A stretch of 20,936 nt of DNA, taken from IMG/VR virus record IMGVR_UViG_3300046820_000132, positions 1 through 20,936 of that record; one strand, given 5' to 3'. This document shows, piece by piece, positions 3,466 to 20,936 of the stretch. Every line of letters starts with the position of its first letter. Within the stretch, counting starts at the first letter, position 1. The translations under genes were made by a program, and so were the position numbers. Origin of the DNA: a virus. The notes beneath the pieces were generated by a model. It worked only from the letters and a program-made list of their open reading frames with translations. It did no database searches and was not told the origin of the DNA.

Positions 3466-4051
3466 TGAGCAACTCAAACAACTCCATATCGGACCGCAAT
3501 GGGTAGACGCATTAAACGCAACCTTTGAGCGATTCAATATCCTGACTCCAATTCAGAAAGCTTCATTCATTGGTCAGTGTGGTCACGAGTGTGGGCAGTT
3601 CAAAGTTCTTGAAGAGAACCTTAACTACCGAGCTGAGACATTGATGAAGCTTTGGTCTAAAAGATTCCCAACACTAGAGATTGCCAATCAATATGCAAGG
3701 AATCCTAAAAAGATTGCCAACATGGTCTACTCTAATCGTATGGGTAATCGTGATGAGGCTAGTGGTGACGGCTATCGTTTCCGTGGTCGTGGGTGTATCC
3801 AGCTTACCGGGCATGCCAACTACTTCCATGCCGGTCAAGCTTGCGGACAAGATTTTGTCATGGAGCCTGATCTCGTAGCGACACCTCAGTATGCGGCAAT
3901 GACTGCCGGATGGTTTTGGGATTTACACAGATTAAATCAATACGCTGATTCGCAGAACTATGTCTTGATGACAAAGAAGATCAATGGTGGAACCATTGGT
4001 TTAAATGATCGAATCAAACACATTGAAATGGCGATAGCTGTTCTAAGTTAA
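3455..4051 (+). CDS. GH19 chitinase-like endolysin
   Basis: A 198-residue, single-domain protein of the glycoside hydrolase 19 fold, used by many phages to cleave the peptidoglycan sugar backbone. The motif GQCGHECGQF places the catalytic acid at E45. EENLNY follows with a second candidate glutamate (E54), and the substrate-cleft signature GDGYRFRGRGCIQLTGHANY lies at residues 104-123. There is no signal peptide or SAR anchor, so release needs a holin; the two-TM protein upstream is the best candidate. AAGGAG at 3441-3446, inside the Rz end, is 8 nt from ATG 3455. Length is typical for phage GH19 lysins. Confidence in the family is high. Confidence 0.93.
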   Translation: MVSSEQLKQLHIGPQWVDALNATFERFNILTPIQKASFIGQCGHECGQFKVLEENLNYRAETLMKLWSKRFPTLEIANQYARNPKKIANMVYSNRMGNRDEASGDGYRFRGRGCIQLTGHANYFHAGQACGQDFVMEPDLVATPQYAAMTAGWFWDLHRLNQYADSQNYVLMTKKINGGTIGLNDRIKHIEMAIAVLS

Positions 4052-4062
4052 GAAGGATTGAG

Positions 4063-5091
4063 ATGCCTCAGATATTGATTACTAAGTTTGCAGGGATGGC
4101 TCCAAGCATATCTCCCAAGCTACTGCCAGAAGGATTTGGCACGGAAGTTAAGAACTTAGATACCCGCTTTGGCGACTTTCGTCCGTTCTATGCTGCAGCG
4201 ACTGTGCAAAGCGCTACAGCAGGGGCAACCTTGTATAGGTTTGCAACCAACTCGTCATTCATTACAAACACCAATGATGTTGATTACGCTCGCGGTCCAC
4301 TAGCAAGTGATACAACTGAGCGAACGTATTACACAGGCGATGGCGCACCCAAGGTTACTGACATCACTTTGGCGGTTCGTCCACTTGGCGTACCAAAAGC
4401 AAGTTTGGCTCCCACCATCACAAGAGTTGTGGTGGATGAGTTGTCTACCGAGGAAGCTGAAACTTATTACAAGCAGCTAGGTGCAAAAGTATTGGCTTAC
4501 ATGAACGCCAATAGAACTCTCACGTACATAGGCGCAGCAAGAACAGCTCCTTGGAATGGAACTATCCCAACACCTTCTACAAGTTACGAAGATCAGGTAA
4601 GGTTTACGATCCCAAGCTCAACAGTTAACGGTGTTAAGACTCCAACCAAAGAGATCTACAAGTCTTTATTCGGAACGGGTGTTGAGGTGGATGCGGATAA
4701 CTACGCAGCAATCCTGAGAGCCAGAGCACCGTCTTATGCATTCCCAAATCTCAAATCAATATTGCTGACATACACAGACGCAGCTGGCGCTACGCTTTTC
4801 ACGGACGCACAGGCTCAAAAGTTTGTTGACTTTATTTCTGATCTTGTATCTGTCAATAACGATTACGTAAAGACCAGATCTGCAAAGCTTCAATCATTAG
4901 CTGATCAGTTTTATGCAGCAGCCAGTGGAGGTGATGGCTTGAATTCCGCAATCAATGCAGCATGGGTTAATTTTTACAGTCAAACGGCAGTAACAGATGC
5001 GATTACAAAAGGAAAGAATACTTTGGCTCAGAACCTGCTGAACATGACTGCCACTCTGTCTTCGCCAACAACATACAATTACGAAGCCTAA
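4063..5091 (+). CDS. N-terminal part of a tail nozzle/hub-like protein
   Basis: A 342-residue protein. Residues 1-118 match the start of a tail structural family I know as a single long protein in many environmental podovirus-like phages: MPQILITKFAGMAPSISPKL, then a GDFRPF turn, an RTYYTGDGAPKVTD stretch and RPLGVPKAS. Residues ~125-342 instead form a mostly helical polar region (STEEAETYYKQLGAKVLAY and later helices) that I do not recognise. The expected downstream part of the family is in the next ORF. AAGGA at 4053-4057 gives a good start. The stop TAA (5089-5091) is followed by one T and then the next ATG. Whether it works as a separate subunit or half of a split protein is unknown. Confidence 0.65.
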   Translation: MPQILITKFAGMAPSISPKLLPEGFGTEVKNLDTRFGDFRPFYAAATVQSATAGATLYRFATNSSFITNTNDVDYARGPLASDTTERTYYTGDGAPKVTDITLAVRPLGVPKASLAPTITRVVVDELSTEEAETYYKQLGAKVLAYMNANRTLTYIGAARTAPWNGTIPTPSTSYEDQVRFTIPSSTVNGVKTPTKEIYKSLFGTGVEVDADNYAAILRARAPSYAFPNLKSILLTYTDAAGATLFTDAQAQKFVDFISDLVSVNNDYVKTRSAKLQSLADQFYAAASGGDGLNSAINAAWVNFYSQTAVTDAITKGKNTLAQNLLNMTATLSSPTTYNYEA

Positions 5092-5092
5092 T

Positions 5093-6763
5093 ATGCCAAG
5101 TCAATTTACCGGCCAATCTGTAACGCAATTAGCAAACTTAATATCTACGTACATTGTTGATGACAATGGGGCAAAGAAAGTAGATCAAGCTGGTTTAAAA
5201 AACTTTATCCTCAGCAATCTTGTTCAACTGCCGTACTACGACCAGACTTCTGCGCTATCAAACTCACCAGAAGTAGATAGATTAGTCAACTCATTAGTTC
5301 AAGTTGTTGACAAAGAAAACTATGTTGGATGGGCAAATTATCCTCAAGGTTCTTTGGATTCAACAGCGGTTGAAACAACAAGCAAGACATTGATTGATCT
5401 TCAACAGCAAGCAAAGAAGATTAACTTAGAGATTCAAACTTACTACGAGTCAATTCTCAAAGATAAAGATAATACGATCAATGACGCATTCCAAGCAGCA
5501 TTGACAGTTCCAGGTGGTAACACACCAGCAACCGGTGTTGAGTTAAGAGATGTATATAGAACATACATATACACATACGTCACTGATAGGGATGAAGAGT
5601 CTGCGCCCTCCCCGGCTGTAGCTACACCATTGAAGATTGATCAGAACGACAACGTATTGGTTGAGTGGCTTGCCCCTCCTGTGAACAGAACGGATATCAA
5701 TCGAGTACGTATCTATCGGAACTCTTCAGGAAATTCATCTAGTGGATTCATGTTGATACATCCGTTGGCTGATATACCAGTTACAACTAAATACGACCCT
5801 GCCAAAACCAATCCAAATTATCTGGACAATTTTGCTGATGATAGGCTTGGTGAGCCATGCCCAACTTTTAATTGGGAGATGCCTCATTCATCTCTTAAAG
5901 GATTAGTAGCTCTTCCAAATGGAATCATGGCTGGGTTCGTTGGAAATACGATTTACTTCTCTGAACCAAACATTCCTTACGCATGGAATCCTGAGTACGC
6001 AATCGTTGTTGAGTACGAAGTAGTTGGCATGGTTGCTTTTGGTCAATCTATCTTTGTTGGGACAAAGGGTAATCCCTATGTGGTTAATGGCGCTGATTCA
6101 GCGGGTATGTCCGCTATCAAGCTTGAGCTTAACCAGTCGTGCGTATCCAAAAGATCATTGAGAACTATTGGTAGCTCAGTAATCTATGCCAGTCCAGATG
6201 GATTGGTGTTGTATCAAAACGGTAGCGCAAACGTATATACGTCCGGGATCATCAGCAAGGCTGATTGGCAAGCTCTAAGTCCAACATCAATAATTGGAGT
6301 TGAGTTTGAAAATAGGTACTACGCTTTCTATACCTCTGGTTGCTTAGTGTTTGACTTGACAAGTGGCAGCTACACAAAATTAGACTTAACAGCAAATGCT
6401 GCATTCTCCGATAGAACATCAGATACGTTGTTTATCCTAACGGGAACTTCGATTAAGAATGCCTCTACTCTGTCAGGCACAGCATTAACTGGATCATATA
6501 AAAGCAGGGTTTACAGGTTTCCGCAGCCGGTATCTTTTTCATGGTTGTATTTTGATACTGATACTCAGCTATCAGAATCTACAACCACAGTGAAGATTTA
6601 TCGGGATGGATCATTGGTTTTGACGAAATCAATGACTACTAATGATCCTGTACGTTTACCTTCTGGTCGTGGGTCTGAGTGGCAAGTTTGGATTGAATCA
6701 AATATCAAAATCAACTGGGCTATCTTGACATCAACAACAGATGAATTGAAGGCTCTTCCATGA
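5093..6763 (+). CDS. Tail nozzle/hub-like beta-propeller protein
   Basis: A 556-residue protein. The first ~150 residues are helical and unfamiliar. From residue ~151 it carries the core of the tail structural family whose N-terminus sits in the preceding ORF: YIYTYVTDRDEESAPSPAV, RVRIYRNSSG, LVALPNGIMAGFVGNTIYFS, a PYAWNPEY turn, CVSKRSLRTIG, and VIYASPDGLVLYQNG. These repeating beta-strand motifs suggest a propeller-like ring at the tail tip. There is no Shine-Dalgarno before ATG 5093, so translation probably restarts from the upstream gene (TAATATG). It ends with ATGA overlap to the fibre gene, fitting tail-tip assembly with the fibre. The family resemblance is from memory; nozzle is my best guess. 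Confidence 0.65.
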   Translation: MPSQFTGQSVTQLANLISTYIVDDNGAKKVDQAGLKNFILSNLVQLPYYDQTSALSNSPEVDRLVNSLVQVVDKENYVGWANYPQGSLDSTAVETTSKTLIDLQQQAKKINLEIQTYYESILKDKDNTINDAFQAALTVPGGNTPATGVELRDVYRTYIYTYVTDRDEESAPSPAVATPLKIDQNDNVLVEWLAPPVNRTDINRVRIYRNSSGNSSSGFMLIHPLADIPVTTKYDPAKTNPNYLDNFADDRLGEPCPTFNWEMPHSSLKGLVALPNGIMAGFVGNTIYFSEPNIPYAWNPEYAIVVEYEVVGMVAFGQSIFVGTKGNPYVVNGADSAGMSAIKLELNQSCVSKRSLRTIGSSVIYASPDGLVLYQNGSANVYTSGIISKADWQALSPTSIIGVEFENRYYAFYTSGCLVFDLTSGSYTKLDLTANAAFSDRTSDTLFILTGTSIKNASTLSGTALTGSYKSRVYRFPQPVSFSWLYFDTDTQLSESTTTVKIYRDGSLVLTKSMTTNDPVRLPSGRGSEWQVWIESNIKINWAILTSTTDELKALP

Positions 6764-9700: not shown

Positions 9701-10326
9701 ACATTACATTTAATGGTACTGGCATGTTTCTTAATGGGAATGTGGTTGGTATAGAAAACTTGATTCCCGGTGCTGCGCTTCCGAACTATGTTCGTACATA
9801 CAAAGGAAATGTTTCTCCAACTGTTAACGTTGGTACGCTAGCAAGCAATAGCGCTTGGGGCCCGTTGGCTATGGATGCTTCGGCGCTTAACAACAAACTT
9901 GGCGCAACAGATTACGATGCATACCGCACACTGTTCCCTGCCGGTACGTATTTTTATGAGCTGTCTGTTCCTGTTAAAAACAACACCAGCGATACCAATG
10001 ACGCTACGTACACAGCCCTAGTGGTCAACCCACCCGGCGGCCCCGGTGGTTCATACCAAAATGTAATTGTTGGTTACGATTACGAGACGTATTCGCCGAT
10101 ATACGAAAGCCAGTTTGTGTCTAACCCCTATACAGTTGTAAGTACCGCAGGAGTTAACGTTGTTGGTGATTGGCAAACTGCCACGATCTTTGGCGTTGGT
10201 CGCTTCACACTAGCGTCACCTACGTACATCTCCCCAGCGGTTATGACCACTGAGTCAAATAACATGAACGTTGTTGCTCGCACCGGTTTTTGCACTTTGA
10301 TTTGGCGTGTCTGGAGAGCCGACTAA
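6760..10326 (+). CDS. Large J-like tail fibre / host-specificity protein
   Basis: An 1188-residue protein. Residues ~30-110 form a mixed attachment region. Residues ~150-235 form a helical coiled-coil shaft. Residues ~240-285 match the DUF1983-type segment near the C-terminus of lambda gpJ-like central fibres (AGGAIAGFGISATEVDG, then AADKFAIVSP). A receptor-binding beta-rich part follows, with a diverged repeat (from residue 472) and three tandem repeats at 549-646, 647-767 and 768-887. A shaft motif (STNYSPGVSGWQIDKAGSAE) precedes a unique Gly/Asn/Thr-rich C-terminal tip. Its start overlaps the previous stop as ATGA, with GAAGG at 6748-6752. The downstream gene is its chaperone. Expected role: trimeric host-recognition fibre. 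Confidence 0.85.
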   Translation: MSTPIDNEKNPPVGDGVKLPGLAAPTSDVNQLRNVVETIKEIVEIREGRRGSKYDQVVTWRDLYNVGLIAVNSGGQTYIKSIDSSGVTGVTLMSPNLSTMMIDQFDKKIKATQVYQDIFSEIGKASSYKGVPQEVVDILISDLAEEAKNRGADIQRVDQRIQEVDRSLAISTQTLTASIDNAQAAIREVSFASVNRDSASAGKVTTLVSSLGNYYQDGGTGRAQLEQTLTTQADRITGLRAQYSIKVKAGGAIAGFGISATEVDGVPSSAFIIAADKFAIVSPNYVGGATNTPDNNIIPFGVDTNGIYMNSNVYIKGTTKIDAGGKVILDGLRGSLNLAVTAAAWSDTSARQAVWAALGKADSATTNNHLVIGDTVTITSGQTPPAFIQTKYWSGSAWATMGVSINGNLLVSGSISADQIDTRGLSIKDSAGNVIFSAGTSLSTSRISGLGTLAGQNSVSYSALDGTKPPSDATRNIVTFSATEPSSPVNGDIWVDTSANPYVIKARTSGAWNTGANYTTNTNQLTDGASLGQTSLWTGVTGTGRPADNATKNIFSQGGFASRPVGSDGDLFYSTDSFQLYQKVDGAWVLAANNTSVDANGAINGTSAGSGTVVANNRISLAANGTLSGAGGGQVTISGLGYSGALNATRNVFTQGPIASIPSGLDGDVYFANDTNQLYQKIAGSWVLSANKTFVDSDGTIKGVSTGAGTAVANSAITITSGVLNGIGTGNGTAVANGLITLSSNGTLSGAGGGTVTITGLGYSGALDATKNVFGRGLFANRPAGSDGDLFLATDTRQLYQKVAGSWFIAANDTFLDADGTIKGISTGSGTVVANSQITITNGAITGIGTGVNTKVANSEISISSSGVLSGAGGGTVTISGLDNTVLRSANPITSTNIGTYISSGVITNAYIGQFIQSTNYSPGVSGWQIDKAGSAELNDATLRGSVVVGTTPVISGNGMTGSGARINSTGTFALGNATTNITFNGTGMFLNGNVVGIENLIPGAALPNYVRTYKGNVSPTVNVGTLASNSAWGPLAMDASALNNKLGATDYDAYRTLFPAGTYFYELSVPVKNNTSDTNDATYTALVVNPPGGPGGSYQNVIVGYDYETYSPIYESQFVSNPYTVVSTAGVNVVGDWQTATIFGVGRFTLASPTYISPAVMTTESNNMNVVARTGFCTLIWRVWRAD
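8173..9420 (+). repeat. Tandem repeat array inside the fibre gene
   Basis: A diverged unit (8173-8403) is followed by three clear units at 8404-8697 (98 residues), 8698-9060 (121) and 9061-9420 (120). Each begins [ND]AT[KR]N[IV]F and contains GDLF or GDVYF, QLYQK.-G[AS]W, LSGAGGG and the end motif TI[ST]GL. Unit 1 lacks about 23 residues present in units 2 and 3 (one inner repeat around GIGTG.-.-.VAN). Codon-level differences between units are many, so the duplication is old or maintained at protein level. Confidence 0.9.
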
Positions 10327-10529
10327 TGTCTAACGAAAATTACAGCAGCTTGGCAATGGAAGCAAAGACCAAACGAAACCGCCTTTTATATGAGACGGAT
10401 TGGACTCAAATGCCAGATGTGCCCCTGACAAACAAAGTCTTGTGGGCGACCTACCGCCAAGCATTGCGCGACATCACAGCACAATCCGGTTATCCAGCAG
10501 AAATCATCTGGCCAACTCCGCCGCAATAA
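10326..10529 (+). CDS. Phage tail (fibre) assembly chaperone
   Basis: A 67-residue protein with the signature of the small phage tail assembly chaperone family (PF16778 type): RNRLLYETDWTQMPDVPLTN, then a W-YRQALRDI motif, and a closing GYPAEIIWPTPPQ. These proteins help tail fibres fold and trimerise. Placement directly after the fibre gene, with TAATG overlap (ATG 10326), supports the role. I chose ATG 10326 (GGAG at 10313-10316) over an upstream in-frame ATG at 10290 that would overlap the fibre gene by 37 nt. It is probably not part of the virion. Length and motifs are typical. Confidence 0.88.
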   Translation: MSNENYSSLAMEAKTKRNRLLYETDWTQMPDVPLTNKVLWATYRQALRDITAQSGYPAEIIWPTPPQ

Positions 10530-10580: not shown

Positions 10581-10985
10581 ATGAGGTTGGTAGAACAACT
10601 CAACCCTGAAGTCTATCTTCAGGCAGAAATGGATGGGGTTGACTCAGGATACTTTGTCTCCCCTACTTTTTCAAGGCAAACCTATTTAAGCAAACTTACC
10701 GAGCTTCCATCAGTTGGTTACCAACATGATGACAAAGATATCGGGGGCGCTGTACTAATCGGCAACAAGCTACATCTTGCCGTCACTAAACAACACAAAG
10801 GATTGTGGGCTTTTTTATTAAAGCCGACTTTGTCGTGGGCGTTTTCTCACTACAACCCATTGATTGTTTGCATTTCTAGCAATAACTACTCAGCCATAAG
10901 GCTGTTAGACGCAACCAGTTTCCGTTTCGTAGAAAGTAAAGACGGTATGAATACCTATGAGATATCACCGAAGGAGATGACATGA
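10581..10985 (+). CDS. GNAT-fold acetyltransferase-like protein (gp13-like position)
   Basis: A 134-residue protein with GNAT-like features: a GGAVLIGNKLHLAV hairpin (residues 55-68), QHKGLW (71-76) where the acetyl-CoA-binding loop Q/R-x-x-G-x-G/A normally lies, a helix, and the late motif CISSNNYSAIRLLDATSFRF (97-116). The second small residue of the cofactor loop is replaced by W, so catalysis is uncertain. Phages of T7-like layout often have a small GNAT-like protein just before the internal core genes (position of T7 gene 13), which is exactly where this gene sits. GAGG at 10573-10576 precedes ATG 10581. It ends with ATGA overlap to the next gene. It could acetylate a virion or host protein, or only act in assembly. 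Confidence 0.6.
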   Translation: MRLVEQLNPEVYLQAEMDGVDSGYFVSPTFSRQTYLSKLTELPSVGYQHDDKDIGGAVLIGNKLHLAVTKQHKGLWAFLLKPTLSWAFSHYNPLIVCISSNNYSAIRLLDATSFRFVESKDGMNTYEISPKEMT

Positions 10986-12013
10986 GCTTCGTAAGAGACC
11001 TACTGTTCGGGAAAGCACCAGCTGCTCCTGACTACAAGCCCATAGCTGAAGCAAATAAAGAAATTTCAGCAGAGAGCATGACGTTTGCAAAGGAGCAAGC
11101 GGCAATTAACAATGCAGATCGCAAGCGGCTACTGGATTCCTCTGAAGGAATCATGAACCGCCAGTTAGGATTGGCAGAAAAAGAGTCAGCTCGTTCAGAT
11201 GATTACTTTAATTACGCCAAGCAAACGTTCCGTCCGGTAGAGCAAGCTATCGCAAGAGACGCGATGAACTTCAACACCGGTCAGTACGCCAGAGACTTAG
11301 CAGCGAGAGCTGGCACTGACGTTAATTACGGTTTTGAAAACGCTCGTGGTCAGGGGATGCGATCTCTCAGCCGTATGGGCGTAAGACCAGACTCAGGTGC
11401 ATTTGCCGCAACAGTAGGAAGGCTCGCATCAGATCAAGCTCTGGGGCTTGCAAACGCTCAGACTAATGCCTACCTAACTGCCGATCAAATGAAGCGTGGA
11501 GCGCTAACCAATGCCGCTTCTGTGGGGCGCGGATACCCCGGCGCATCTCAAGGCAGCAGTCAGCTGGCTGGCGGCAACTTAGCTGGCGCTAACAGCTCGA
11601 TGAATCAAACGCAGGGCACGATCAATCAAGGCGCAATGATTCCGGGGCAGTATTACAGCACCGCAATGAATGCGAATAACTCTGCGGCTAATAACTTGAA
11701 CATGGGCTTCCAGAACCAGTTTGCAAATTTCCAAACACAAGGAATGCAGACTGCCGCAATCATGAACGCTGCTGGTGCTTTTTTTGGTGGCGGCGGTCGG
11801 GCAGATGGCGGGGACATCAAATCTGGCGGCGCTATCAAGGGACCCGGCACGGGTATCTCTGACTCTATCCCAGCCATGCTATCGGATGGCGAGTACGTGA
11901 TACCAGCAGATGTGGTTAAACGCAAAGGCGTTGAGTTCTTTGACAAGTTGTTAGAGAAGCATCACATGCCAGCAGCAGAACAGAAACGTAGATACGGAAT
12001 TGGGGGACGGTAA
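10982..12013 (+). CDS. Internal/ejection virion protein (gp14-like position)
   Basis: A 343-residue protein with no signal peptide. The N-terminal ~200 residues are Ala/Gln/Asn-rich helices (for example SRMGVRPDSGAFAATVGRLA), consistent with virion core proteins that form a channel with the next two gene products. The C-terminus holds ADGG (274-277) and then GPGTGISDSIPAMLSDGEYV (287-306), a short module found in many tail-tube-length and ejection-type phage proteins, followed by a basic tail. AAGGAG at 10971-10976 lies 5 nt before ATG 10982. ATGA overlap upstream and TAATG overlap downstream mark a tight operon. The role as a T7 gp14 counterpart is inferred from position and composition. Confidence 0.65.
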   Translation: MSFVRDLLFGKAPAAPDYKPIAEANKEISAESMTFAKEQAAINNADRKRLLDSSEGIMNRQLGLAEKESARSDDYFNYAKQTFRPVEQAIARDAMNFNTGQYARDLAARAGTDVNYGFENARGQGMRSLSRMGVRPDSGAFAATVGRLASDQALGLANAQTNAYLTADQMKRGALTNAASVGRGYPGASQGSSQLAGGNLAGANSSMNQTQGTINQGAMIPGQYYSTAMNANNSAANNLNMGFQNQFANFQTQGMQTAAIMNAAGAFFGGGGRADGGDIKSGGAIKGPGTGISDSIPAMLSDGEYVIPADVVKRKGVEFFDKLLEKHHMPAAEQKRRYGIGGR

Positions 12014-13647
12014 TGGCTAATCCATATGATTTCACAAGTGGTTACATGCAATCACGCCAATTGGCAGAACAGCGTAAGCAAGCGGAGGAGACGAAGAAGT
12101 ATAGGGAAGAGGCTATTAAACTTCAGCGTGATGAGATCGCCGCTAATGCACCATACAAAGCCGCATTAGCAAGACAGGCTGATGCAGCTGGTCTGAAAAT
12201 TGGAGCCGAAACAGAGGGTGTTACTTTAGCAAACGATCTCACTAGATCGTACATCCCAAGAATTCAACAACTGTTGAATAGGAATAACAATAAACTCGGC
12301 GCTCAAAGCGGACCTGTATTTAATCCAAAGAATTTCGCTTCACCAGACTACGGATTCAAAGCTGATTACAGCTTGGCTGGCTCCTCAGACTCAGACTCAG
12401 AAGATTTTGATAGATATGCTGATGGAGGTGCAATTAGATCTTTTTCAAATGGCACACCCGGTGGATTAAAAGTTCCTAAACGAGCTGAAGCAATTGGCAC
12501 GGCTGCTAATGTAGAGCAGCCAGATGCTATGGCTCCAGAGCGTATTAGCCCACTGCAAGTTCTTTCTGAGAATGATCCACAGAAAGCAACAACGCTCACG
12601 CAAAATATCTTTGGCGCAACACCTAAAGAGTTTCAAGAAATGCTCGGTGCTTTTAGCATGATTGACTTTGCTCGAGGCAAGGCAACATCTTCAGACTTGA
12701 TGAATCAAGTCGATAAGATCAGGAAGATGCAAGCTGAAGGTGTGGGTGTAGCTATTCAGCGTGGATTAGCTGGAGACTTTAAAGGTGCGCAATCTGCTTT
12801 TGATGAAAGCGGTGACCAGCGGTTTGGCGACAATGTTCAATCAATGAAGAAGATAAAAATTGAGAACGTTGTTCCCGGAGCCGCATTAAAGACTAAAGAT
12901 TTTTACGATGGTCTAGAAGTAACTTTGAAAGATGGTAGCAAGATGACACTGGATCCTCGTCGTCTTTTAGCTGAGACCGTAAGCCTTAAAGAAGTTATAG
13001 ATAACGACTATCGCTTTGGTAATAGTATTAGACAAAATGATGCGAGTGTTTTCAACACCCAATCAGCTAATGCAAGAACTGCTCTAGATAGACAGCTGCG
13101 TAATGATAGGCTTAAGCAAGAAGAAGAACTCAAGCGAGATAAGTTGCTTGGGGACGAGTTTTCTCTTTATGTTAAGGGTAGGCAGCAAGCCTTTACTCGC
13201 GACAATCCCGGCAACACCATCGATCCGACTCTTAAACAAGAGAAGATGGATGAGATTGAGCAGATGGGTATGGTTGGTTACAACGTAGCAAAGACTAATT
13301 TGCGAATGGGTAATAAAAACGTTACGGCTGGCTCAGTTGTTCCATATTTGCCATACATGGGTGATATCACAAATCAAGTAACAGACAAAGCAAAGATTGA
13401 ATTCTGGAAGAATCCAAATAACTTTGCAAAGGGTCAAGATGGCAAGCCTTTGGGTATGGAGTTTGAAAATAGAAAGTATTTACAAACAAGAGATGGCACG
13501 TTTCTGCCTATGCCATATGTAAATTTACCTCCAGCTACCAATCCTAAACCTAGTGGAAATGTTTCAACACCTGAAGAAGATCAGCAGAGATACATTAGAA
13601 ATAGATCCCCGGGATACCGCGACCAGAATACTCGCCAAGGAGGATAA
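12013..13647 (+). CDS. Internal/ejection virion protein (gp15-like position)
   Basis: A 544-residue soluble protein. Residues 10-75 are a charged Gln/Lys/Glu-rich helix, followed by a disordered Ser/Asp-rich stretch (SSDSDSEDFDRYADGG, residues 124-139). The central part is helical and the C-terminus Pro/Gln/Arg-rich. The motif ADGGAIRS (136-143) repeats part of the C-terminal module of the preceding protein, hinting at a shared partner. Its first five codons are identical to those of the giant gene that follows (MANPY). GGGGGA at 12002-12007 precedes ATG 12013, which overlaps the previous TAA. By order and size it corresponds to T7 gp15, part of the DNA-ejection conduit; no direct sequence similarity to T7 is claimed. 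Confidence 0.6.
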   Translation: MANPYDFTSGYMQSRQLAEQRKQAEETKKYREEAIKLQRDEIAANAPYKAALARQADAAGLKIGAETEGVTLANDLTRSYIPRIQQLLNRNNNKLGAQSGPVFNPKNFASPDYGFKADYSLAGSSDSDSEDFDRYADGGAIRSFSNGTPGGLKVPKRAEAIGTAANVEQPDAMAPERISPLQVLSENDPQKATTLTQNIFGATPKEFQEMLGAFSMIDFARGKATSSDLMNQVDKIRKMQAEGVGVAIQRGLAGDFKGAQSAFDESGDQRFGDNVQSMKKIKIENVVPGAALKTKDFYDGLEVTLKDGSKMTLDPRRLLAETVSLKEVIDNDYRFGNSIRQNDASVFNTQSANARTALDRQLRNDRLKQEEELKRDKLLGDEFSLYVKGRQQAFTRDNPGNTIDPTLKQEKMDEIEQMGMVGYNVAKTNLRMGNKNVTAGSVVPYLPYMGDITNQVTDKAKIEFWKNPNNFAKGQDGKPLGMEFENRKYLQTRDGTFLPMPYVNLPPATNPKPSGNVSTPEEDQQRYIRNRSPGYRDQNTRQGG

Positions 13648-16600
13648 ATGGCTAATCCATATTACCTTGACTCGGATACGGCACTGAGCGCGATCAAGTC
13701 AAAATCTAAAGGTTTATCGCTTGTGGGTATGGACTTGCCAGACTTTAGTGGAATGGCTACGCCTAAAGAAGCTATTCCCACTCAACGGTCAACTCCTGTT
13801 GCTACCCCTGCCCCGGTTCAGTCACAAAGTTCCGGCGGTAGTCAGCTTATATCAATGGATCTCCCGGACTTTTCTGGGCTTCCTAATGTAGCTCCAACAT
13901 CTAGCGCTTCAGCAAAACCCACAGAAGAAGGATTCTTTACTGGACTAGGTAAAGCTTTGTCTGGTGGCGTACAAGATACAGGCGGCAGTCTGTACTCTGC
14001 TGGCGCTACAGCGGTTGATGCTAGGGGTGCGGTAGTAGATTCAGCTAGAGCTGCGGCAGCTAGATCACCAGATCAAGCTTTGGCACTTCAAAACTTTAAT
14101 GCTGACATTAAGAAACGCCAAGCCGCAGATGACACGGGATTGTTAGCTGGTATCAAGAACGTTGCTGGCGCTGTGTATGACAATCCTGAAGGCGCATTCC
14201 AAATGGTTGTGTCTCAGCTGCCTAACACCGCTGTATCTTTAGGTGCTGGCGCGGCTGGAGGAGCAGCAGGTTTTGCTTTTGGTGGTCCAATTGGCGCTGT
14301 TGCCGGTTTTATTACTGGTTTGTTCTCTGCCAATACAGCATTGGAGATTGGTGGCAAAGCGCAGAAAGCTGCAAGTGATGGTAATTTTTCAGACGCAGAG
14401 CGTTATGAAGCCATCCAGCAAGGTGTTGTTAAAGGCGGTGTCATTACCGCAGTGGACGTAGCTACCCTTGGCGCATCCAAATGGATCTTGGGTACAGCCA
14501 ACCGTGCCGTCGAAGCGGCTACTGTGCGTACACTTGAATCAGCGGGATACGACGCTACAAAGTTAGCAACTTCAATCAAGCAATCTCAAGTTGAGGCGCT
14601 AAAGGCTACTGCCAATCAAGGCAGAGAAGCAAGCACTGCGGCTTTGGAGAAAGCCACGTTTGAAGCAATGGTTCGTGAAGGTGTTACAGATCCCAAGTTG
14701 GTATCAGCCATTCGAAATGCACAGACTACTGCGCTTGAAGGCGTAAATACCATTGCACGTAAAGCAAGCAGGGGCACTGCCGCTGTTGGATTAGAAACTG
14801 TTGGTGAGGGTCTTGGAGAGTACCTTGGAGAGCTTGCCGCTACTGGCGAAGCATCACCTACAGAGGCTGTACTGGAGGCGCTTGCAGGACTTTCTATGAG
14901 CGTTACAGAGCTTGGTGGATTAGCCAAGCTTGAGAAGCCCGGTCAACTAACACAAGCTACAAATGTGGCTGGTCTTCGTGGGCTTGATAAGAACGGAAAC
15001 ATTCAATCAACCAAACAGGAACTCAATCAAGACATCACCCGATTGGATGATGCCAACTTGATGAGAGCAACGATTGATATTGAAGGTGCTTTCAAGCGGG
15101 ATGCTGATCAAGGCACACGCAAGACATTGGACATGATGACTGCTCTTTATGACCAAGCATCAGACGATGAAGCTGGAACAGCGGTCAAGCAATCTCTTGA
15201 TCGGGTAGCAGCTCGTGTTGGTTTAAGTACAGCGTTTAATTCGCTTAAAGGTAACAGGGTAGCTATCAATGAAGGCTACTCAATCTTAAGTGATGCTCCT
15301 CAGTTAGGCGAAGATTTCTTGACTAGCGCAGAAGTCTACGGGAATACCCTCCCCCCTATGGGCAGAGTTAAATTCCCACCCAAGCCGCAACGTACTCAAG
15401 AAGATATTGATGCTGAGAATGAGGCGATGTGGGATGCGCAAGGGGCTACAGCCACTAATCCGCTGGATGCAAATCAAACATCAATTGACGTTACTCCGCC
15501 AGATTTAAATCAATTAGATGTTACTCAATCAATAGCACCCGATCAGAACCAAGAAGTAAATCAGCAAGCAGATACTCAAGCTCAAAACGTTATAACGACA
15601 TGGGACACCATAGCACCGGGTCAAACAATCACGCTGTATCGTGGTGAATCACAGGATCAAATGCGAGATGGTCAATGGTGGACTACAGATAGAAGTAAGG
15701 CGGAGAAATACGGTACTGTTACAGAGGTATCTCTACCTTCAGAAACGGTAGGTCAGAATTCAGCCCGTGGTCAAACTGCTGATGAGTTTGTATTCACAAG
15801 TATTCGCCCCACTACTTTAGCCAAGCTTCCCGAAGCTTTTACTGAAATGGACAAAGGGGTTGGAACTCAAACTAATCGAGTTGCCGATGTTGGGACAGCC
15901 CCGCAAGATGTTATTGCTTTCCACTTAACAGAGTCAAATACCCGCAAGGGTAAAGAAGGTGTAGCGCCTACTGACATACAGATTTCAGAAGTGCCTCCGT
16001 TCTTGCAGAAGATTGCTGATGCATTTGGTGTTAAGTTAAATGGCTATACAACCGACAAGTCAACTGTCAAAGGCTTTAGCGACAACAACAGCAACAACAT
16101 TTACATCAATACGGCAGCACTGTCTAAGGTTGATGGCATGTTTATCTTGGGCCATGAGGTATGGCATCAGCTAGAGAATCGAAACAAAGCTTTAGCGGAT
16201 GAATTGTCCGCCAGTATTGTTGGTTACCTCAAGGGGAATGCATACGCAAGATACGCCAAGAAGCTGAGTGATCTTGGTTATTCCAAAAATGATATAGACA
16301 GTGAGATTACCGGTGACATCCTTGGTTTGATGTTCAATGATGGTAGGTTCTGGCAGATGGTGGGACAAAAGAATCCCAACCTACTTGAAGCAGTTCGCAT
16401 TGCGATTGACAGCATCCTTGCAAAAATGAAAGAGATGTTTGGAAGAGCTGATGGTTTGCAAAAACAACTCACGGATGTCGAGACAGTGCGAGATTTGCTG
16501 TCTTCTGTTGCAGCTGAGTTGGCGCAACAGAAAGGCACCTCTGGAGACCAAACTGCTAGCTTCATGGAAGACTCTGAAGATGCAGATCCACGCATGGCGG

Positions 16601-19600
16601 AAGTTAACCGTCTTCGTAAAGAAGGTAAAACAGATCAAGCATCTAAGTTAAAGCAAAAGATTGAGGCAGATGCTAAGACAGTACGTCAAGCCAACATTGA
16701 CCAAGAAGAAAACGATAACGAAACATTCAGAGCCAATGATCCATTGGTTCAGGTTGAATCTTTGTTGTCTCAAGGCAACGTTGGTCAAGCATCTAAGGTG
16801 TTTAGAGAAAACAAGTTGTTTGAAACTCGGGGTATTGACTTCTCAAGTCTGATGAAGAAAGCCAAGGCAGCGCCTAAGAAGGCAATGATTGGTACAGGCA
16901 GAGGTAAACAACTGGACGAGCTTACTAAAGACAAGCCAGCTAAAGAAGCGCCAGCACCAGCAGAAAAGCGTGTTGTGTACTCTGAGCCAGTAGAGGAGTT
17001 GCGTCGTAAGTTCAATGGAATCATTGGTCAGACTACGCAAACTGCGTACTTCACAAACACTCGTAAGCTTTTGGAAAAACAAATCAATGATTTGTACGGA
17101 AAGCTGAGTGCTTTGAATACGATGGTTGTAAAGAACAGCGACGGAACTCAGTCAGTATTCAAGCTACAAGATGAGTCAGACGAGAATGCTGGCATGTGGG
17201 GATACAGCGATCTAAACGCTTATGACCGCAGCGCTGATGGATTTGTTTACGACAAACCATCAACCAAACAAGAACTTCTTGGTCGCTTACGCCAGTTAAA
17301 CGAAGAGCTTGAGCTTATTCGAGGCAAGTCCGCTGCAAGCAAGGCGGCTTTGTTCAAGCGTGGCGCTGCCCGCATGGCTGACACCATGATGGGTCTGTCC
17401 AAAGAGGCGATCATTGCGGGGTCCAACCGCGAAGAAGTAAATGAGCTTCTATCTAACTACATGCAGATGCTGACTGCCTTGGCGGTTACAGAGTCTGAGG
17501 CTAGACAAAACAGGTTGGCTAGGTCTAAGTTCAACAGCGAAGGTTTTAAAGAATCTACTGCAACTGAAGCTGAGATTCAAAATGAAATCCAAGAGCAGTT
17601 AAATGCCGCTCAAGATGCCGCCAATCAAACACCTCCAATGACAGAGGAAGAGGCATTAGGAAAGCTGATTCAGGATGTACGTAGTAATACCATCTCTGTT
17701 GCTGACGCATCTCAAGCGATTGATCAAGCTGCCAAGGAAGGCGACATTACCAACAAGGCTAATGTTGTTAAGCGATTCTTAGCTGGGTTAGTTGGCGATC
17801 TTCCAAACCTTGTTGGTACTCAATACGACAGACGACTAAGCCAGATAACCTCTTGGGCATCTGCTGCCAGTCGTGACGGCTTGCTTCGCTTTGATGACTT
17901 CATTGATGTTTTCAGCATGCAAGGTGTGGATATTCCTTTCGCAATTACCCAAAATACGCACGTTGCATTACGCCAAAGGTTTACAGACTATCTAGCTCAA
18001 GCAGGTACAGGCTACGCCAATCGTGACGCATGGATGCGCTCAATGGATTCGGTGATTAACTTTAATCCCGGTCTGCTAAAGAACGGAACGTTCACTGATT
18101 CAGAAGTTGCTGGCTACGAAGCATGGAAGGAAGCCACACAGAACGTAGCTAAACGCCGCAAGATTGGAGACAGGGAATCCAACACATTAGAGGATGCATT
18201 CCCTCACCTCCTGTTCCTTGACCACACGTTGAATGAGATGCGCAATCCATCAACAATGCCAGAGCGTGAGCAGATCATTCTTTCAAAGACTATTCCGAAT
18301 CTGGTTGATGCTTACTTTGGGGACGTTGCATATGCAATGCACTTTAGACCAGATTTGAGATTACAAGTTCTTGATATCTTGTCTGAGGCGGAGCAAAAGG
18401 AGTTTGAAACTTGGATCGATAACAAGAGAAAAGCTGTTAATACCGAAGTTAACTTATCTGCAAGAGTTCCATTCATTAAGGAACTTCTTGGTATGAGGTT
18501 CATGGATGATGCCACGTTCGGGCAATTCCGAAACCAGATTATCAGATCACAGTTGAGTGATCTACGGGATATTACTGATGCTGCTAATGCAGTCAATCAG
18601 ATTGCAATGACTGGGGTTGATCCAACCACAGGCGAGATCTTTGAGCGAGGAACTGTTCAAGCCGAGCAGATTCTTTCTGATCACATTGACAGTTTGGTAA
18701 TGAACGGATTAATGGAAGATGTGGTGAACACATCAACCGGCAATACCATGTCTCAGTATGGTGCAAAGCTACGCGAAGACATGGGCTTTGGTGAGACAAG
18801 GGAAGACACGCTTGACCAGATTAGGGACACAAGAGCGGAAGAGAGAGACGCTGCTGGTGAATCCCCAACAATTTCTATTGAAGATTTTGAGAGATCTAGT
18901 GGTAGACAAGAGAACACAGATGATCTTTCTACCGATGAGCTATACAACATTGGCGAAGAAGTTGATGTTCAAGACATGACAACCCGGGAGGATGATGCTC
19001 CGCTGCGTCGTGGAATGTTCAGTGGCGTTCTGACTAACGAGTTGGTCAATACGTATGTAGCCAAGATTACCAGCAAGTGGAAGAACGCTCCTCAGATCGT
19101 GGTGCTAAACAGCCACTTCCAATTACCCGCAGCCTTGCGTGACCAAGTCACAGGCATGCTGACTGAAGGCATGGGCGCTAAAGGTTTGTTCGATAGCGCT
19201 ACTGGCGTAACCTACCTGTTTGCTGACTATTTGACTGGCGAGGCGGACACGCAGTTCACCCTCTTCCATGAGATTTACGGACACTTGGGTAACCGTGCGT
19301 TCCAAGGCGCTGACTTCGATCAGTTCCTGCTGAACATGTACAACTCTAACGAGGTTGTCCGCCGTACTGTAGATGCTGCCGTGGCTAAAGGCGGAGTAAC
19401 CAAGCTGCAAGCCATCGATGAAGTCTTGGCTGACATGGCGGCTGATGGCGTAGAGGTATCAGCGGCAACAGAGTGGATTGGCAAGACGATTGCTGGTCTA
19501 CGTAACATTGGCTTTAACTTCTTGGCTGACTTCCTTGGCAAGATGACCAGTGCTGAATTGGCTTACAGCCTAAAGATGGCAAAGCAGCACGTAGACAATG

Positions 19601-20936
19601 GCGGTGGATACAGCCCACTTAAGGGTGCGCCTCGGGATATCCGACTGGCTGAAGGTAAATTGCCTTATGAGTTGTTTGCTACCAAAGGTGGTAACACCAC
19701 AGGCTACGCTCGTTATGACCCCCTAAATGACACATGGTATTTGTTTTCCAATAAGAACGGAGACATCCGCCAAAGATCGTTTGTAAATACGTTCGACAAC
19801 TACGATCAGCTTCAGCAGTTTATGAGGAGATTGGGTACTGTTGAGCAGCGTGTGCGTTCTGGATTCTTCAGAGACAACAAGATCCCTGCTGACTACGTGG
19901 CTTTCGAGAAGTCTCGTGAAGTAAGCAGACTGCGTGGTTACTGGAATGCTGCTGTTAACAAGTTACAGAACCAGTACGCTCCAGTATTTAGGATCGTTGA
20001 GCAGATGGAGAAGATTGGTCGTGTAAGCGATCAGCTTGATCTGCGCAAAGACTTGCGTTTGTATGAGCGCCAGACAGCTGTCATGGTTGAGGATGCAAAC
20101 AAAGAGTTCGTCACTCCAATCATGAACTTACTGAAAGAAGCAAGAAAGCAAAAGGGTAAGCAAGGGTACGCATCGGAGGATGGGACAATCCAAGCCGCCA
20201 CTATTGATGAGATGTTGAATCTTTTCCTAGTTGCCCAGACAGCTGAAGAGCGTAACTTGCAGATCAATAGGATTAATCCAACCAGCCTAAAAGGCTCTGG
20301 TATGGACACCCTTATTGCAAGGGAGATCCTTGACTTTGTAAGCCAGCAGTCTTACGCCAAGCAGTTCAATGAGATCGGCAAACTCTTGGATGCAATGAGC
20401 GACAAGAAGATTAACAATGAGATTGCCACTGGATTGATTACAAAGAAGGATGGTGAAGCAAGACGTTCTGCCTATGCGCATTACCGGAATCTGTCCGGCA
20501 TCAATAAAGAAGTTGACGAAGACTTCATGGATGACCCTAGCTTAAACATGAGCACCAAGTTCTTGAATAAAGCTCGTGATAAGAGAGCGCTTGGTAGATC
20601 TGACATTGCGCAAGAGGTGCTGGCTAGAACCATCCTTGGCTACGAGGCATCCATTATTCGTGGTCAAAAGAATTTAGTCTCACTAAAAGTTCTAGCATTC
20701 TTTGAAACAAACTATGACCCGAACTTTGTCTCTATCAATGAGCAATCTAAGATTAAAAAGATTGGTGAAGATGGTTTTGTCCAGATCATAGATAACGAAC
20801 AATACATTCGACAGCCTGATGTGATGGTTGCAAGGCTAAGAGGTATACCAATAACCATTAGGTTTAAAGATACTGGAGCCGGTTCCATTGTTGAATCGTT
20901 ATACGGCACGAATCCAGTTGCGCAAAATCGTTTGCT
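13648..20936 (+). CDS. Giant polyvalent ejection-type protein (3' end beyond window)
   Basis: The frame is open from ATG 13648 to the window edge: 2429 complete codons, no stop. AAGGAGG at 13637-13643 is the strongest ribosome binding site seen. In order: MANPY start; twin MDLPDFSG motifs (28-35, 70-77); a glycine-rich hydrophobic stretch (about 200-231); helices; an ADP-ribosyltransferase-like domain (about 652-730, R665, T679/T680, E713); a zincin-like domain (HEVWH 836-840); long helical regions; an acidic linker (about 1740-1785); a second zincin-like domain (HEIYGH 1874-1879); and helical large-polyvalent-protein-type C-terminal regions. Many domains on one phage chain is the mark of polyvalent proteins. 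Place and size match T7 gp16. Delivery into the host cell with the DNA is inferred. Confidence 0.92.
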   Translation, partial: MANPYYLDSDTALSAIKSKSKGLSLVGMDLPDFSGMATPKEAIPTQRSTPVATPAPVQSQSSGGSQLISMDLPDFSGLPNVAPTSSASAKPTEEGFFTGLGKALSGGVQDTGGSLYSAGATAVDARGAVVDSARAAAARSPDQALALQNFNADIKKRQAADDTGLLAGIKNVAGAVYDNPEGAFQMVVSQLPNTAVSLGAGAAGGAAGFAFGGPIGAVAGFITGLFSANTALEIGGKAQKAASDGNFSDAERYEAIQQGVVKGGVITAVDVATLGASKWILGTANRAVEAATVRTLESAGYDATKLATSIKQSQVEALKATANQGREASTAALEKATFEAMVREGVTDPKLVSAIRNAQTTALEGVNTIARKASRGTAAVGLETVGEGLGEYLGELAATGEASPTEAVLEALAGLSMSVTELGGLAKLEKPGQLTQATNVAGLRGLDKNGNIQSTKQELNQDITRLDDANLMRATIDIEGAFKRDADQGTRKTLDMMTALYDQASDDEAGTAVKQSLDRVAARVGLSTAFNSLKGNRVAINEGYSILSDAPQLGEDFLTSAEVYGNTLPPMGRVKFPPKPQRTQEDIDAENEAMWDAQGATATNPLDANQTSIDVTPPDLNQLDVTQSIAPDQNQEVNQQADTQAQNVITTWDTIAPGQTITLYRGESQDQMRDGQWWTTDRSKAEKYGTVTEVSLPSETVGQNSARGQTADEFVFTSIRPTTLAKLPEAFTEMDKGVGTQTNRVADVGTAPQDVIAFHLTESNTRKGKEGVAPTDIQISEVPPFLQKIADAFGVKLNGYTTDKSTVKGFSDNNSNNIYINTAALSKVDGMFILGHEVWHQLENRNKALADELSASIVGYLKGNAYARYAKKLSDLGYSKNDIDSEITGDILGLMFNDGRFWQMVGQKNPNLLEAVRIAIDSILAKMKEMFGRADGLQKQLTDVETVRDLLSSVAAELAQQKGTSGDQTASFMEDSEDADPRMAEVNRLRKEGKTDQASKLKQKIEADAKTVRQANIDQEENDNETFRANDPLVQVESLLSQGNVGQASKVFRENKLFETRGIDFSSLMKKAKAAPKKAMIGTGRGKQLDELTKDKPAKEAPAPAEKRVVYSEPVEELRRKFNGIIGQTTQTAYFTNTRKLLEKQINDLYGKLSALNTMVVKNSDGTQSVFKLQDESDENAGMWGYSDLNAYDRSADGFVYDKPSTKQELLGRLRQLNEELELIRGKSAASKAALFKRGAARMADTMMGLSKEAIIAGSNREEVNELLSNYMQMLTALAVTESEARQNRLARSKFNSEGFKESTATEAEIQNEIQEQLNAAQDAANQTPPMTEEEALGKLIQDVRSNTISVADASQAIDQAAKEGDITNKANVVKRFLAGLVGDLPNLVGTQYDRRLSQITSWASAASRDGLLRFDDFIDVFSMQGVDIPFAITQNTHVALRQRFTDYLAQAGTGYANRDAWMRSMDSVINFNPGLLKNGTFTDSEVAGYEAWKEATQNVAKRRKIGDRESNTLEDAFPHLLFLDHTLNEMRNPSTMPEREQIILSKTIPNLVDAYFGDVAYAMHFRPDLRLQVLDILSEAEQKEFETWIDNKRKAVNTEVNLSARVPFIKELLGMRFMDDATFGQFRNQIIRSQLSDLRDITDAANAVNQIAMTGVDPTTGEIFERGTVQAEQILSDHIDSLVMNGLMEDVVNTSTGNTMSQYGAKLREDMGFGETREDTLDQIRDTRAEERDAAGESPTISIEDFERSSGRQENTDDLSTDELYNIGEEVDVQDMTTREDDAPLRRGMFSGVLTNELVNTYVAKITSKWKNAPQIVVLNSHFQLPAALRDQVTGMLTEGMGAKGLFDSATGVTYLFADYLTGEADTQFTLFHEIYGHLGNRAFQGADFDQFLLNMYNSNEVVRRTVDAAVAKGGVTKLQAIDEVLADMAADGVEVSAATEWIGKTIAGLRNIGFNFLADFLGKMTSAELAYSLKMAKQHVDNGGGYSPLKGAPRDIRLAEGKLPYELFATKGGNTTGYARYDPLNDTWYLFSNKNGDIRQRSFVNTFDNYDQLQQFMRRLGTVEQRVRSGFFRDNKIPADYVAFEKSREVSRLRGYWNAAVNKLQNQYAPVFRIVEQMEKIGRVSDQLDLRKDLRLYERQTAVMVEDANKEFVTPIMNLLKEARKQKGKQGYASEDGTIQAATIDEMLNLFLVAQTAEERNLQINRINPTSLKGSGMDTLIAREILDFVSQQSYAKQFNEIGKLLDAMSDKKINNEIATGLITKKDGEARRSAYAHYRNLSGINKEVDEDFMDDPSLNMSTKFLNKARDKRALGRSDIAQEVLARTILGYEASIIRGQKNLVSLKVLAFFETNYDPNFVSINEQSKIKKIGEDGFVQIIDNEQYIRQPDVMVARLRGIPITIRFKDTGAGSIVESLYGTNPVAQNRL
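14215..14340 (+). other. Glycine-rich hydrophobic segment of the giant protein
   Basis: Residues ~190-231 contain VSLGAGAAGGAAGFAFGGP followed by IGAVAGFITGLFSA: closely spaced Gly and Ala with hydrophobics, long enough for two membrane passages and like glycine-zipper segments of membrane-active proteins. In an ejection protein this could insert in the host inner membrane during DNA entry. Membrane insertion is inferred from composition only. Confidence 0.5.
15601..15837 (+). other. ADP-ribosyltransferase-like domain (ART-PolyVal type)
   Basis: Residues ~652-730 show the R-S/T-E order of the ART fold: TLYRGES (R665, NAD-binding strand), GQWWTTDRSKAEKYG (T679/T680 in place of the STS motif, with the helix that follows), and ADEFVF (E713, candidate catalytic Glu). 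No second Glu/Gln sits two residues before E713 (A711), unlike classic E-x-E or Q-x-E toxins. The short spacing resembles ART domains described in phage polyvalent proteins. Transfer of ADP-ribose to a host target is possible but unproven. Confidence 0.6.
15901..16440 (+). other. Zincin-like metallopeptidase domain 1 (HExxH)
   Basis: Residues ~752-931. HEVWH at 836-840 supplies two histidine ligands and the catalytic E837. EITGDILG at 886-893 offers E886 as a plausible third ligand, 46 residues after the second His, in the E-x-x-x-D form seen in several zincins. A predicted strand before the motif (NNIYINTAAL) matches the edge strand of zincins. It resembles the metallopeptidase domains of polyvalent proteins. 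Substrate unknown: self-processing or a host protein. Confidence 0.65.
19069..19569 (+). other. Zincin-like metallopeptidase domain 2 (HExxGH)
   Basis: Residues ~1808-1974. The segment KWKNAPQIVVLNS, a YLFADYL strand, LFHEIYGHLGNRAF, and DEVLAD (1924-1929) form a pattern I recall from giant phage proteins. The His pair is spaced one residue wider (H1874, H1879) than in HExxH, as in the HExxGH site of M49 dipeptidyl peptidase III. E1925 is the likely third ligand, 46 residues after the second His. Activity is not shown. Confidence 0.6.

What the first reader, a model, noticed from the sequence alone, without database searches (positions are those of the whole stretch)
13648..20936. Giant polyvalent ejection protein carrying an ART-like domain and two distinct zincin-like sites
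One uninterrupted frame of at least 2429 codons combines a membrane-active-looking segment, an ADP-ribosyltransferase-like domain and two separate metallopeptidase-like sites. Its operon order matches T7 genes 13-16, so the protein may be packaged in the virion and ejected. That would deliver NAD-dependent modification and proteolysis to the host at the moment of DNA entry, before any phage gene is expressed. Seen: the frame, motifs and order. Known: polyvalent proteins bundle effector domains in phages and conjugative elements. Inferred: virion location and delivery.
Basis: partly seen in the sequence, partly recalled or inferred. Interest (0 to 1): 0.85.

Follow-up and report, generated by a model that had tools for sequence, protein, structure and literature searches.

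The report
Giant phage protein with swappable cargo
This is a very large protein that a phage probably carries in its particle and injects with its DNA; it bears enzyme-like modules, one of which a close relative replaces with other sequence and which also turns up in a plasmid's DNA-transfer protein.

Summary
The frame is real: 2429 codons, cut by the contig end. [quoted passage not shown] A C-terminal homologue with LPD38, Burkholderia phage JC1 gp69, is found in purified virions, and three further window ORFs match two other JC1 virion proteins. So 'polyvalent virion protein' is well supported by homology; ejection is inferred. Two metallopeptidase-like sites exist: HExxH (residue 836) and HExxxH (residue 1874), the latter of a described polyvalent form. 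The ART-like module (residues about 655-735) has moderate support: invariant R, T and E, and a model whose weak structural matches are mostly ART-superfamily proteins (best Z 4.0). It lacks the H-Y-D signature published for polyvalent-protein ARTs. Relatives occur in other long phage proteins, including T7-like internal virion proteins, and in a MobF relaxase. The sister phage lacks it at the same place and carries another cassette nearby. Verdict: a new variant of a known kind, with a variable cargo slot and an unnamed ART-like family. Activity, host targets and proteolysis of host proteins remain untested.

The parts
13648..20936 (+). Giant polyvalent protein gene, 2429 codons, open at the 3' end of the contig
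   Evidence: complete homologue L002:10001-19456, 3151 aa
14266..14331 (+). Glycine/alanine-rich hydrophobic segment, residues 207-228
   Evidence: best 19-residue hydropathy mean 1.52
15451..15886 (+). Exchanged block (residues about 602-746): no blastn match to the sister phage between flanks of 92-93% identity
15610..15852 (+). ART-like module, residues about 655-735; invariant R665, T679, E713
15970..16497 (+). First zincin-like domain, residues about 775-950; HEVWH at 16153-16167, candidate third ligand E886
16578..16590 (+). Site where the sister phage carries about 409 bases instead of 13 (another cassette)
19090..19542 (+). Second zincin-like domain, residues about 1815-1965; HEIYGH at 19267-19284, candidate third ligand E1925
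12013..13647 (+). 544-aa protein directly upstream (position of an ejection protein; no JC1 homologue found)
10982..12013 (+). 343-aa virion protein, homologue of JC1 gp64
10581..10985 (+). 134-aa protein, in the place of JC1's acetyltransferase gp63 (homology not found)
4063..6763 (+). Two ORFs (342 and 556 aa) that together match one tail protein (phrog_511; JC1 gp61)

Best explanation
A phage-type polyvalent protein, packaged in the virion and delivered with the DNA. A shared backbone (middle part, HExxxH zincin, C-terminal half with LPD38) probably serves packaging and entry; the zincins probably cut the chain so that cargo domains are freed. Ahead of the middle part lies a variable cargo slot. 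In this phage it holds an ART-like module that would use NAD+ to modify a host molecule in the first moments of infection. Shown here: sequence, relatives, exchange of the module, homology to a known virion protein. Inferred: ejection, cleavage, NAD+ chemistry, host target.
For: LPD38 at residues 2814-3000 of the sister protein, E 3e-23; LPD38 is listed as phage-type only. JC1 gp69 is C-terminally homologous (E 4e-29), has LPD38 near its own C-terminus and gave 51 unique peptides from CsCl-purified virions. The window's 343-aa and 342/556-aa ORFs match JC1 gp64 and gp61, also virion proteins. The gene directly upstream of the ART-bearing giant is a 'DNA ejection protein' family member in 2 of the 5 loci whose directly upstream gene was scanned (L019, L020). 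ART-like module: all 10 loci have it in a long ORF (756 to 3528 codons); R, WWT and E are invariant in 10 aligned rows. Of 50 structural rows shown, 40 are, by title or entry series, Tpt1/KptA, PARP/tankyrase or a named ADP-ribosyltransferase. Module exchange: 436 non-matching bases between flanks of 92-93% identity.
Against: No virion or enzyme data for this phage. ART fold: Foldseek has no match at E<=0.001 in PDB or BFVD (best BFVD rows are uncharacterised phage proteins, E 0.01), best Z only 4.0, model mean pLDDT 71.8; a profile search of PDB sequences found no ART. The module is short (about 80 residues). Zincin folds: no convincing library match; an IrrE row (3dti) at rank 33, E 2.2, is only suggestive. 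Zincin 1 has only one diverged relative (L032). ART was found in none of the 80 loci kept for zincin 2 (of 120 confirmed), though many of those ORFs are cut by the locus edge. Morphology is inferred from JC1: the 343-aa protein also matches tape-measure families and the fibre matches tail-tip and central-fibre-J families.
Confidence: 0.6

Rival explanations
1. The ART-like module has the fold but not the chemistry proposed: a Tpt1/KptA-like RNA repair activity or a catalytically dead binding module.
For: The best structural rows are Tpt1/KptA (Z 3.5-4.0); the module is short; the usual S of the R-S-E triad is T here.
Against: R, T and E are invariant across 10 rows from several backbones, which argues against decay; in the loci seen it sits in long phage proteins or a relaxase.
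Confidence: 0.25
2. The zincins are effectors that cut host proteins, rather than self-processing proteases.
For: PMC5512222 section 8 lists this as possible; the HExxH zincin is in the variable slot (found in L032 and the sister, not in the other nine of L030-L039, some truncated), as cargo would be.
Against: The HExxxH zincin goes with the shared backbone (those relatives were, however, retrieved by this very domain); P1 DdrB is described as proteolytically processed before packaging.
Confidence: 0.25
3. The protein is a late morphogenesis factor that acts in the producing cell and is not ejected.
For: No virion data for this phage; the gene is simply in the late operon.
Against: JC1 gp69 is in virions; ART-like module in proteins annotated as internal virion proteins of phiKT and PGT2 and in a conjugative relaxase.
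Confidence: 0.1
4. The ART block in this contig is an assembly chimera.
For: Only one contig was found that carries it in this context.
Against: Reading frame intact through both junctions; a similar N-terminal region and the module also occur together in L021.
Confidence: 0.04

Closest known systems
Phage-type polyvalent proteins (Iyer et al. 2017, PMC5512222; sections 8, 9, 29, 32 and passages read)
   Same: Very long, several domains, LPD38, zincins including the HEXXXH form, next to virion genes
   Different: The ART-like module lacks the published H-Y-D signature; [quoted passage not shown]
JC1 gp69, DarB-like giant of Bcep22-like phages (PMC9144972, passages and table parts read)
   Same: C-terminal homology, LPD38 near the C-terminus, neighbours gp61 and gp64 homologous to window ORFs; found in virions
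   Different: The JC1 table rows shown list HepA, YtxK and COG4646 (helicase/methylase by my reading), LPD3 and a lytic transglycosylase; none was found here in Pfam. No ART is among the rows shown
N4 virion RNA polymerase (PMC12633501, passages read)
   Same: About 3500-residue ejection protein with a HExxH motif domain, in one operon with two smaller ejection proteins
   Different: No RNA polymerase domain seen here by Pfam
T4 Alt (as described in PMC5512222)
   Same: Head-packaged, injected ART; R-S-E type active site
   Different: Separate protein; no sequence relation tested
phiKT/PGT2 internal virion protein
   Same: Carries a relative of the module in a long internal virion protein with an SLT domain
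   Different: 1400 aa, no HExxH or HExxxH found, T7-like phage (Autographiviridae)

Membership tests
Phage-type polyvalent protein | Large multidomain protein with an LPD domain | tested here: met
   LPD38 E 3e-23 in the complete sister; it lies beyond the window's end
Phage-type polyvalent protein | Gene among virion genes | tested here: met
Phage-type polyvalent protein | Several unrelated enzymatic domains | tested here: inconclusive
   ART-like and two zincin-like by motif and model only
Phage-type polyvalent protein | Packaged and injected | not testable with these tools
   homologue JC1 gp69 in virions
ART superfamily | ART fold | tested here: inconclusive
   Z up to 4.0, 40 of 50 rows ART by title or entry series; no Foldseek E<=0.001
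Tox-ART-HYD2 clade (published polyvalent ARTs) | H in strand 1, Y in strand 2, D in strand 5 | tested here: not met
   strand 1 has invariant R, strand 2 WWT, the last strand invariant E; read from the alignment and model, not from a structure
R-S-E type ART | R, S, E active site | tested here: inconclusive
   R and E invariant; T in the S position
Zincin, HEXXH | HEXXH helix after a three-stranded sheet, then a helix with E | tested here: inconclusive
   motif and predicted order fit, with the later helix at low confidence; only one diverged relative; fold search inconclusive
Polyvalent zincin, HEXXXH form | HEXXXH motif and later E | tested here: met
   invariant in 5 sequences (window and 4 of the 5 records found by plain tblastn) and in 35 found partly with the motif pattern
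Polyvalent zincin, HEXXXH form | Zincin fold | tested here: inconclusive
   predicted element order compatible; fold and profile searches without a convincing zincin match; DUF6782 putative metallopeptidase for 2 of 35 members
DarB-like protein | Helicase/methylase part | tested here: not met
   Pfam found only LPD38 in P0002
T7 gene 13-16 ejection module | Homology to T7 gp13-16 | not tested
   order only; T7 proteins were not compared

The most novel reading that the evidence does not exclude
A compact, so far unnamed ART family with an R-T-E signature is a portable first-contact effector: it is loaded into whatever protein enters the recipient cell with the DNA, in phage giants of at least three backbone groups and in a conjugative relaxase, and is exchanged as a cassette so that phages that are 92-99% alike around it carry different cargo against host defences.
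Probability: 0.35. Interest if true: 0.7.

Novelty: new variant of a known kind. Interest (0 to 1): 0.5.

Why it matters
If the module is an ART, it widens the set of NAD-using effectors delivered before any phage gene is expressed, probably in podovirus-like phages (inferred from JC1), where ARTs are reported as rare (3%, PMC9503650 passages). The close sister with a different slot gives a natural comparison: same backbone, different cargo. The presence of the module in an E. coli phage (phiKT) and in a relaxase makes its function testable in laboratory strains.

Tried and rejected
Family searches of the window part of the giant: Pfam only HsbA at E 0.46, PHROGs only unnamed phrog_4776 and phrog_30882 at E 0.02 and 0.07, NCBIfam only EzrA, 17 bits against a cut-off of 556, PDB by sequence one row at E 0.41. 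ART module alone: no significant Pfam match (best is Bac_rhamnosid_N, E 0.069), PHROGs phrog_4776 and phrog_30882 (7 and 4 of 10 members at E<=0.1, best 6.5e-4 and 2.2e-3), PDB by profile nothing below E 0.8. Genome collection, two scans: 64 and 46 stretches matched a pattern, none confirmed. First viral scan with the ART pair: 63 stretches, 1 confirmed. Zincin 1: no match in the phage collection; a scan with its alignment gave only the two known contigs. Zincin 2: Pfam gave DUF6782 (putative metallopeptidase) for 2 of 35 members. Foldseek and VIA with the 1200-residue model: I recognised no zincin among the 50 VIA rows shown; one row for a T7 ejectosome tunnel has rmsd 39.6 and is meaningless. 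Literature: none of the listings pointed to a description of this module; it has no name to search for, and only the held library was covered. Four papers were opened: PMC5512222 (outline, sections 8, 9, 29, 32, passages), PMC9144972, PMC9503650 and PMC12633501 (passages).

Circularity and weak points: L022/L023 (phiKT, PGT2) are rows of A4, so their profile E-values are not independent; outside the profile they have tblastn E 0.04-0.05 and 0.005-0.006. The relaxase is not in A4 and scores E 7e-19 with it, but it was in A3, the query. Zincin 2 relatives were retrieved with patterns of which one holds HExxxH, so its conservation there is partly by construction; 34 of the 80 loci were used. The masked comparison used 10 proteins (without L017 and L023) and the truncated window protein; it gave five groups at E<=1e-5. 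Repeated with the full sister, L017 added and E<=1e-3, L015 touches the sister's C-terminal part (21% identity, E 9e-5), in line with LPD38 in L015, so only four groups remain unlinked: window/sister/L021 with L015-L020, L014 (cut at its 3' end), phiKT, relaxase. No control was run for how often HExxH or HExxxH occurs by chance in the ART-bearing ORFs. In one search the profiles of the 342-, 556- and 134-aa ORFs rest on no other relative than the sister's copy.

Full report
What is in the window. The window is a complete viral record of 20,936 bases. Its last frame starts at 13648 and runs 2429 codons off the end. The upstream late genes are a GH19-type endolysin (3455-4048), a tail protein split over two ORFs (4063-6763), a long tail fibre (6760-10326), a 134-aa protein, a 343-aa virion protein and a 544-aa protein. 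Of six starts looked at, five overlap the previous stop or lie within one base of it; the 134-aa gene does not. The giant gene has AGGAGG just ahead of its ATG.

The complete protein. A sister contig of 60,024 bases (L002) and a third of 17,461 bases (L003) match closely. L002 carries the full gene, 3151 residues. Pfam finds LPD38 at residues 2814-3000, E 3e-23, beyond the window's end, which is why the window alone gave no domain. Iyer et al. [quoted passage not shown] The sister's late genes include a terminase large subunit, a connector/portal-type protein (phrog_332, portal second) and a major head protein. The integrase-like gene directly behind the giant was named by me from its sequence, not by a family search.

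Virion evidence by homology. The C-terminal 1351 residues match 130 phage records, 101 of them Vibrio phages, among them Burkholderia phage JC1 gp69 (E 4e-29). JC1 gp69 gave 51 unique peptides in CsCl-purified virions, gp64 nine and gp61 six (PMC9144972, passages and tables), and its table lists LPD38 at 4195-4401 of 4515 residues. Against a set of six JC1 proteins, the profile of the 343-aa protein (six relatives) matches gp64 (E 2e-31); profiles of the 342- and 556-aa ORFs, which rest on the sister's copy alone, match gp61 (E 3e-9 and 5e-54); the 134- and 544-aa proteins matched none. JC1's order is gp61, gp62, acetyltransferase gp63, gp64, gp65, gp66, gp67, gp68, gp69, which parallels the window; T7 itself was not compared. 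Against a plain podovirus reading, the 343-aa protein also matches tape-measure families and the fibre matches tail-tip and central-fibre-J families.

The ART-like module. A relative at 47% identity lies in another giant ORF. A search with a four-row alignment found 10 loci (one is the contig already known, two are phiKT and PGT2 by length). In all 10 the module lies in a long ORF, of 756 codons (cut by the contig end) to 3528, and in 8 of 10 (all but phiKT and PGT2) a HExxH or HExxxH motif follows downstream, without a chance control. The plasmid collection gave one record, a MobF relaxase of Paraburkholderia plasmid pBPHYT01, between its relaxase and helicase parts (E 2e-8; 1e-9; profile E 7e-19; Pfam). 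The phage collection gave phiKT and PGT2 internal virion proteins (E 0.04-0.05; 0.005-0.006). With the module masked, 10 such proteins fall into five groups at E<=1e-5: L015/L016/L018/L019/L020, window/L021, L014, phiKT, relaxase. With the full sister and E<=1e-3 the first two join weakly through the LPD38 region (LPD38 in L015), leaving four. Of 10 upstream proteins scanned, two (in L019 and L020, each directly upstream of the giant) match a DNA ejection protein family; the directly upstream genes of L015, L016 and L021 did not.

Is it an ART? Conserved are LYRG, WWT and (D/N)EFVF; R, T and E are invariant in 10 rows, two of which are near-duplicates. The AlphaFold2 model has core blocks at pLDDT 73-88, mean 71.8, pTM 0.59. 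Foldseek gave no match at E<=0.001. VIA-align of Foldseek's first 1000 chains gave best Z 4.0 (rmsd 3.2, 64 residues) to Tpt1; of the 50 rows shown, by title or entry series, 14 are Tpt1/KptA, 25 PARP or tankyrase and one a named ADP-ribosyltransferase. That Tpt1 is of the ART superfamily, and that several of the other ten are ART-like, I recall without a call. Z is below the usual level of trust, and the rows are redundant, but their agreement is notable. The published polyvalent ARTs have an H-Y-D signature and the Alt/VIP2 family is said to be absent from genuine polyvalent proteins; the present module lacks H-Y-D. Its R-T-E reading is mine.

The zincins. Site 1, HEVWH at 836, is rare by chance (6 of 2000 shuffles) and its domain is kept at 39% identity in L032. 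Site 2, HEIYGH at 1874, is the HEXXXH form that Iyer et al. describe for polyvalent proteins; H, E, H and a later E are invariant in five sequences, the window and four of the five records found by plain tblastn. A 1200-residue model (mean pLDDT 64.9, pTM 0.32) gives for site 1 a helix, three strands and the motif helix (blocks 64-79), then a later helix with the candidate glutamate at low confidence (50-56); for site 2 a strand, a helix, two strands, the motif helix and a later helix with the candidate glutamate (blocks 67-85). Both are compatible with the zincin core. Fold searches with this long model were inconclusive.

The cargo slot. Against L002 the window DNA matches at 92.6% (13915-15450), then not at all for 436 bases, then at 92.3% (15887-16577) and 98.8% (16591-20936); the sister has about 409 bases where the window has 13. 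That extra cassette has relatives in L037 and as small separate genes in Vibrio phages, beside ribonucleotide reductase genes in the two looked at. Ten further relatives (L030-L039) were retrieved by zincin 2, so all have it; the C-terminal half is seen in nine (L037 is cut at its 3' end) and the middle part in seven, but the N-terminal region only in four (four of the ten are cut at the N-terminal side), zincin 1 only in L032, the sister cassette only in L037 and the ART module in none. L031 has another HExxxH stretch in the slot. So the slot varies while the backbone stays.

Most likely working. Packaged with its neighbours, delivered at DNA entry, cut by its own zincins, releasing an ART-like module that modifies a host molecule. 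Packaging is supported by homology; the later steps are inference. The finding is a new variant of a known kind, interest 0.5.

Noticed in passing
window 4063-6763: One tail protein family (phrog_511, JC1 gp61) is split over two ORFs of 342 and 556 aa that both carry extra sequence at the junction; the sister has the same split.
   Followed up: partly
window 9600-10443 against L002: The C-terminal part of the tail fibre and the next small gene show no blastn match to the sister phage although flanks are 95-98% alike; internal repeats lie at about 8590-9395.
   Followed up: no
L002:12880-13288: Unnamed cassette (conserved GSxxSST, SAEGxRxGRV, YNxGER) in two giants and as small separate genes in Vibrio phages, beside nrd genes in the two looked at.
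   Followed up: partly
L007:6246-16289: Another ART-bearing giant also has an inorganic pyrophosphatase domain (E 5e-48); stretches that look NADAR- and SLOG-like to me were not tested.
   Followed up: no
L025 (Bacteroides phage BS-TP4): A gene of about 16.2 kb encodes a relative of zincin 2 next to a portal gene.
   Followed up: no
L031, slot region: A different HExxxH stretch (LHEIGAH) sits in the variable slot.
   Followed up: no
L002:19708-20811 and L113: An integrase-like gene follows the giant gene directly in the sister phage (opposite strand; named by eye) and an annotated integrase does so in Stx phage P27, which suggests a temperate phage with a similar layout.
   Followed up: no
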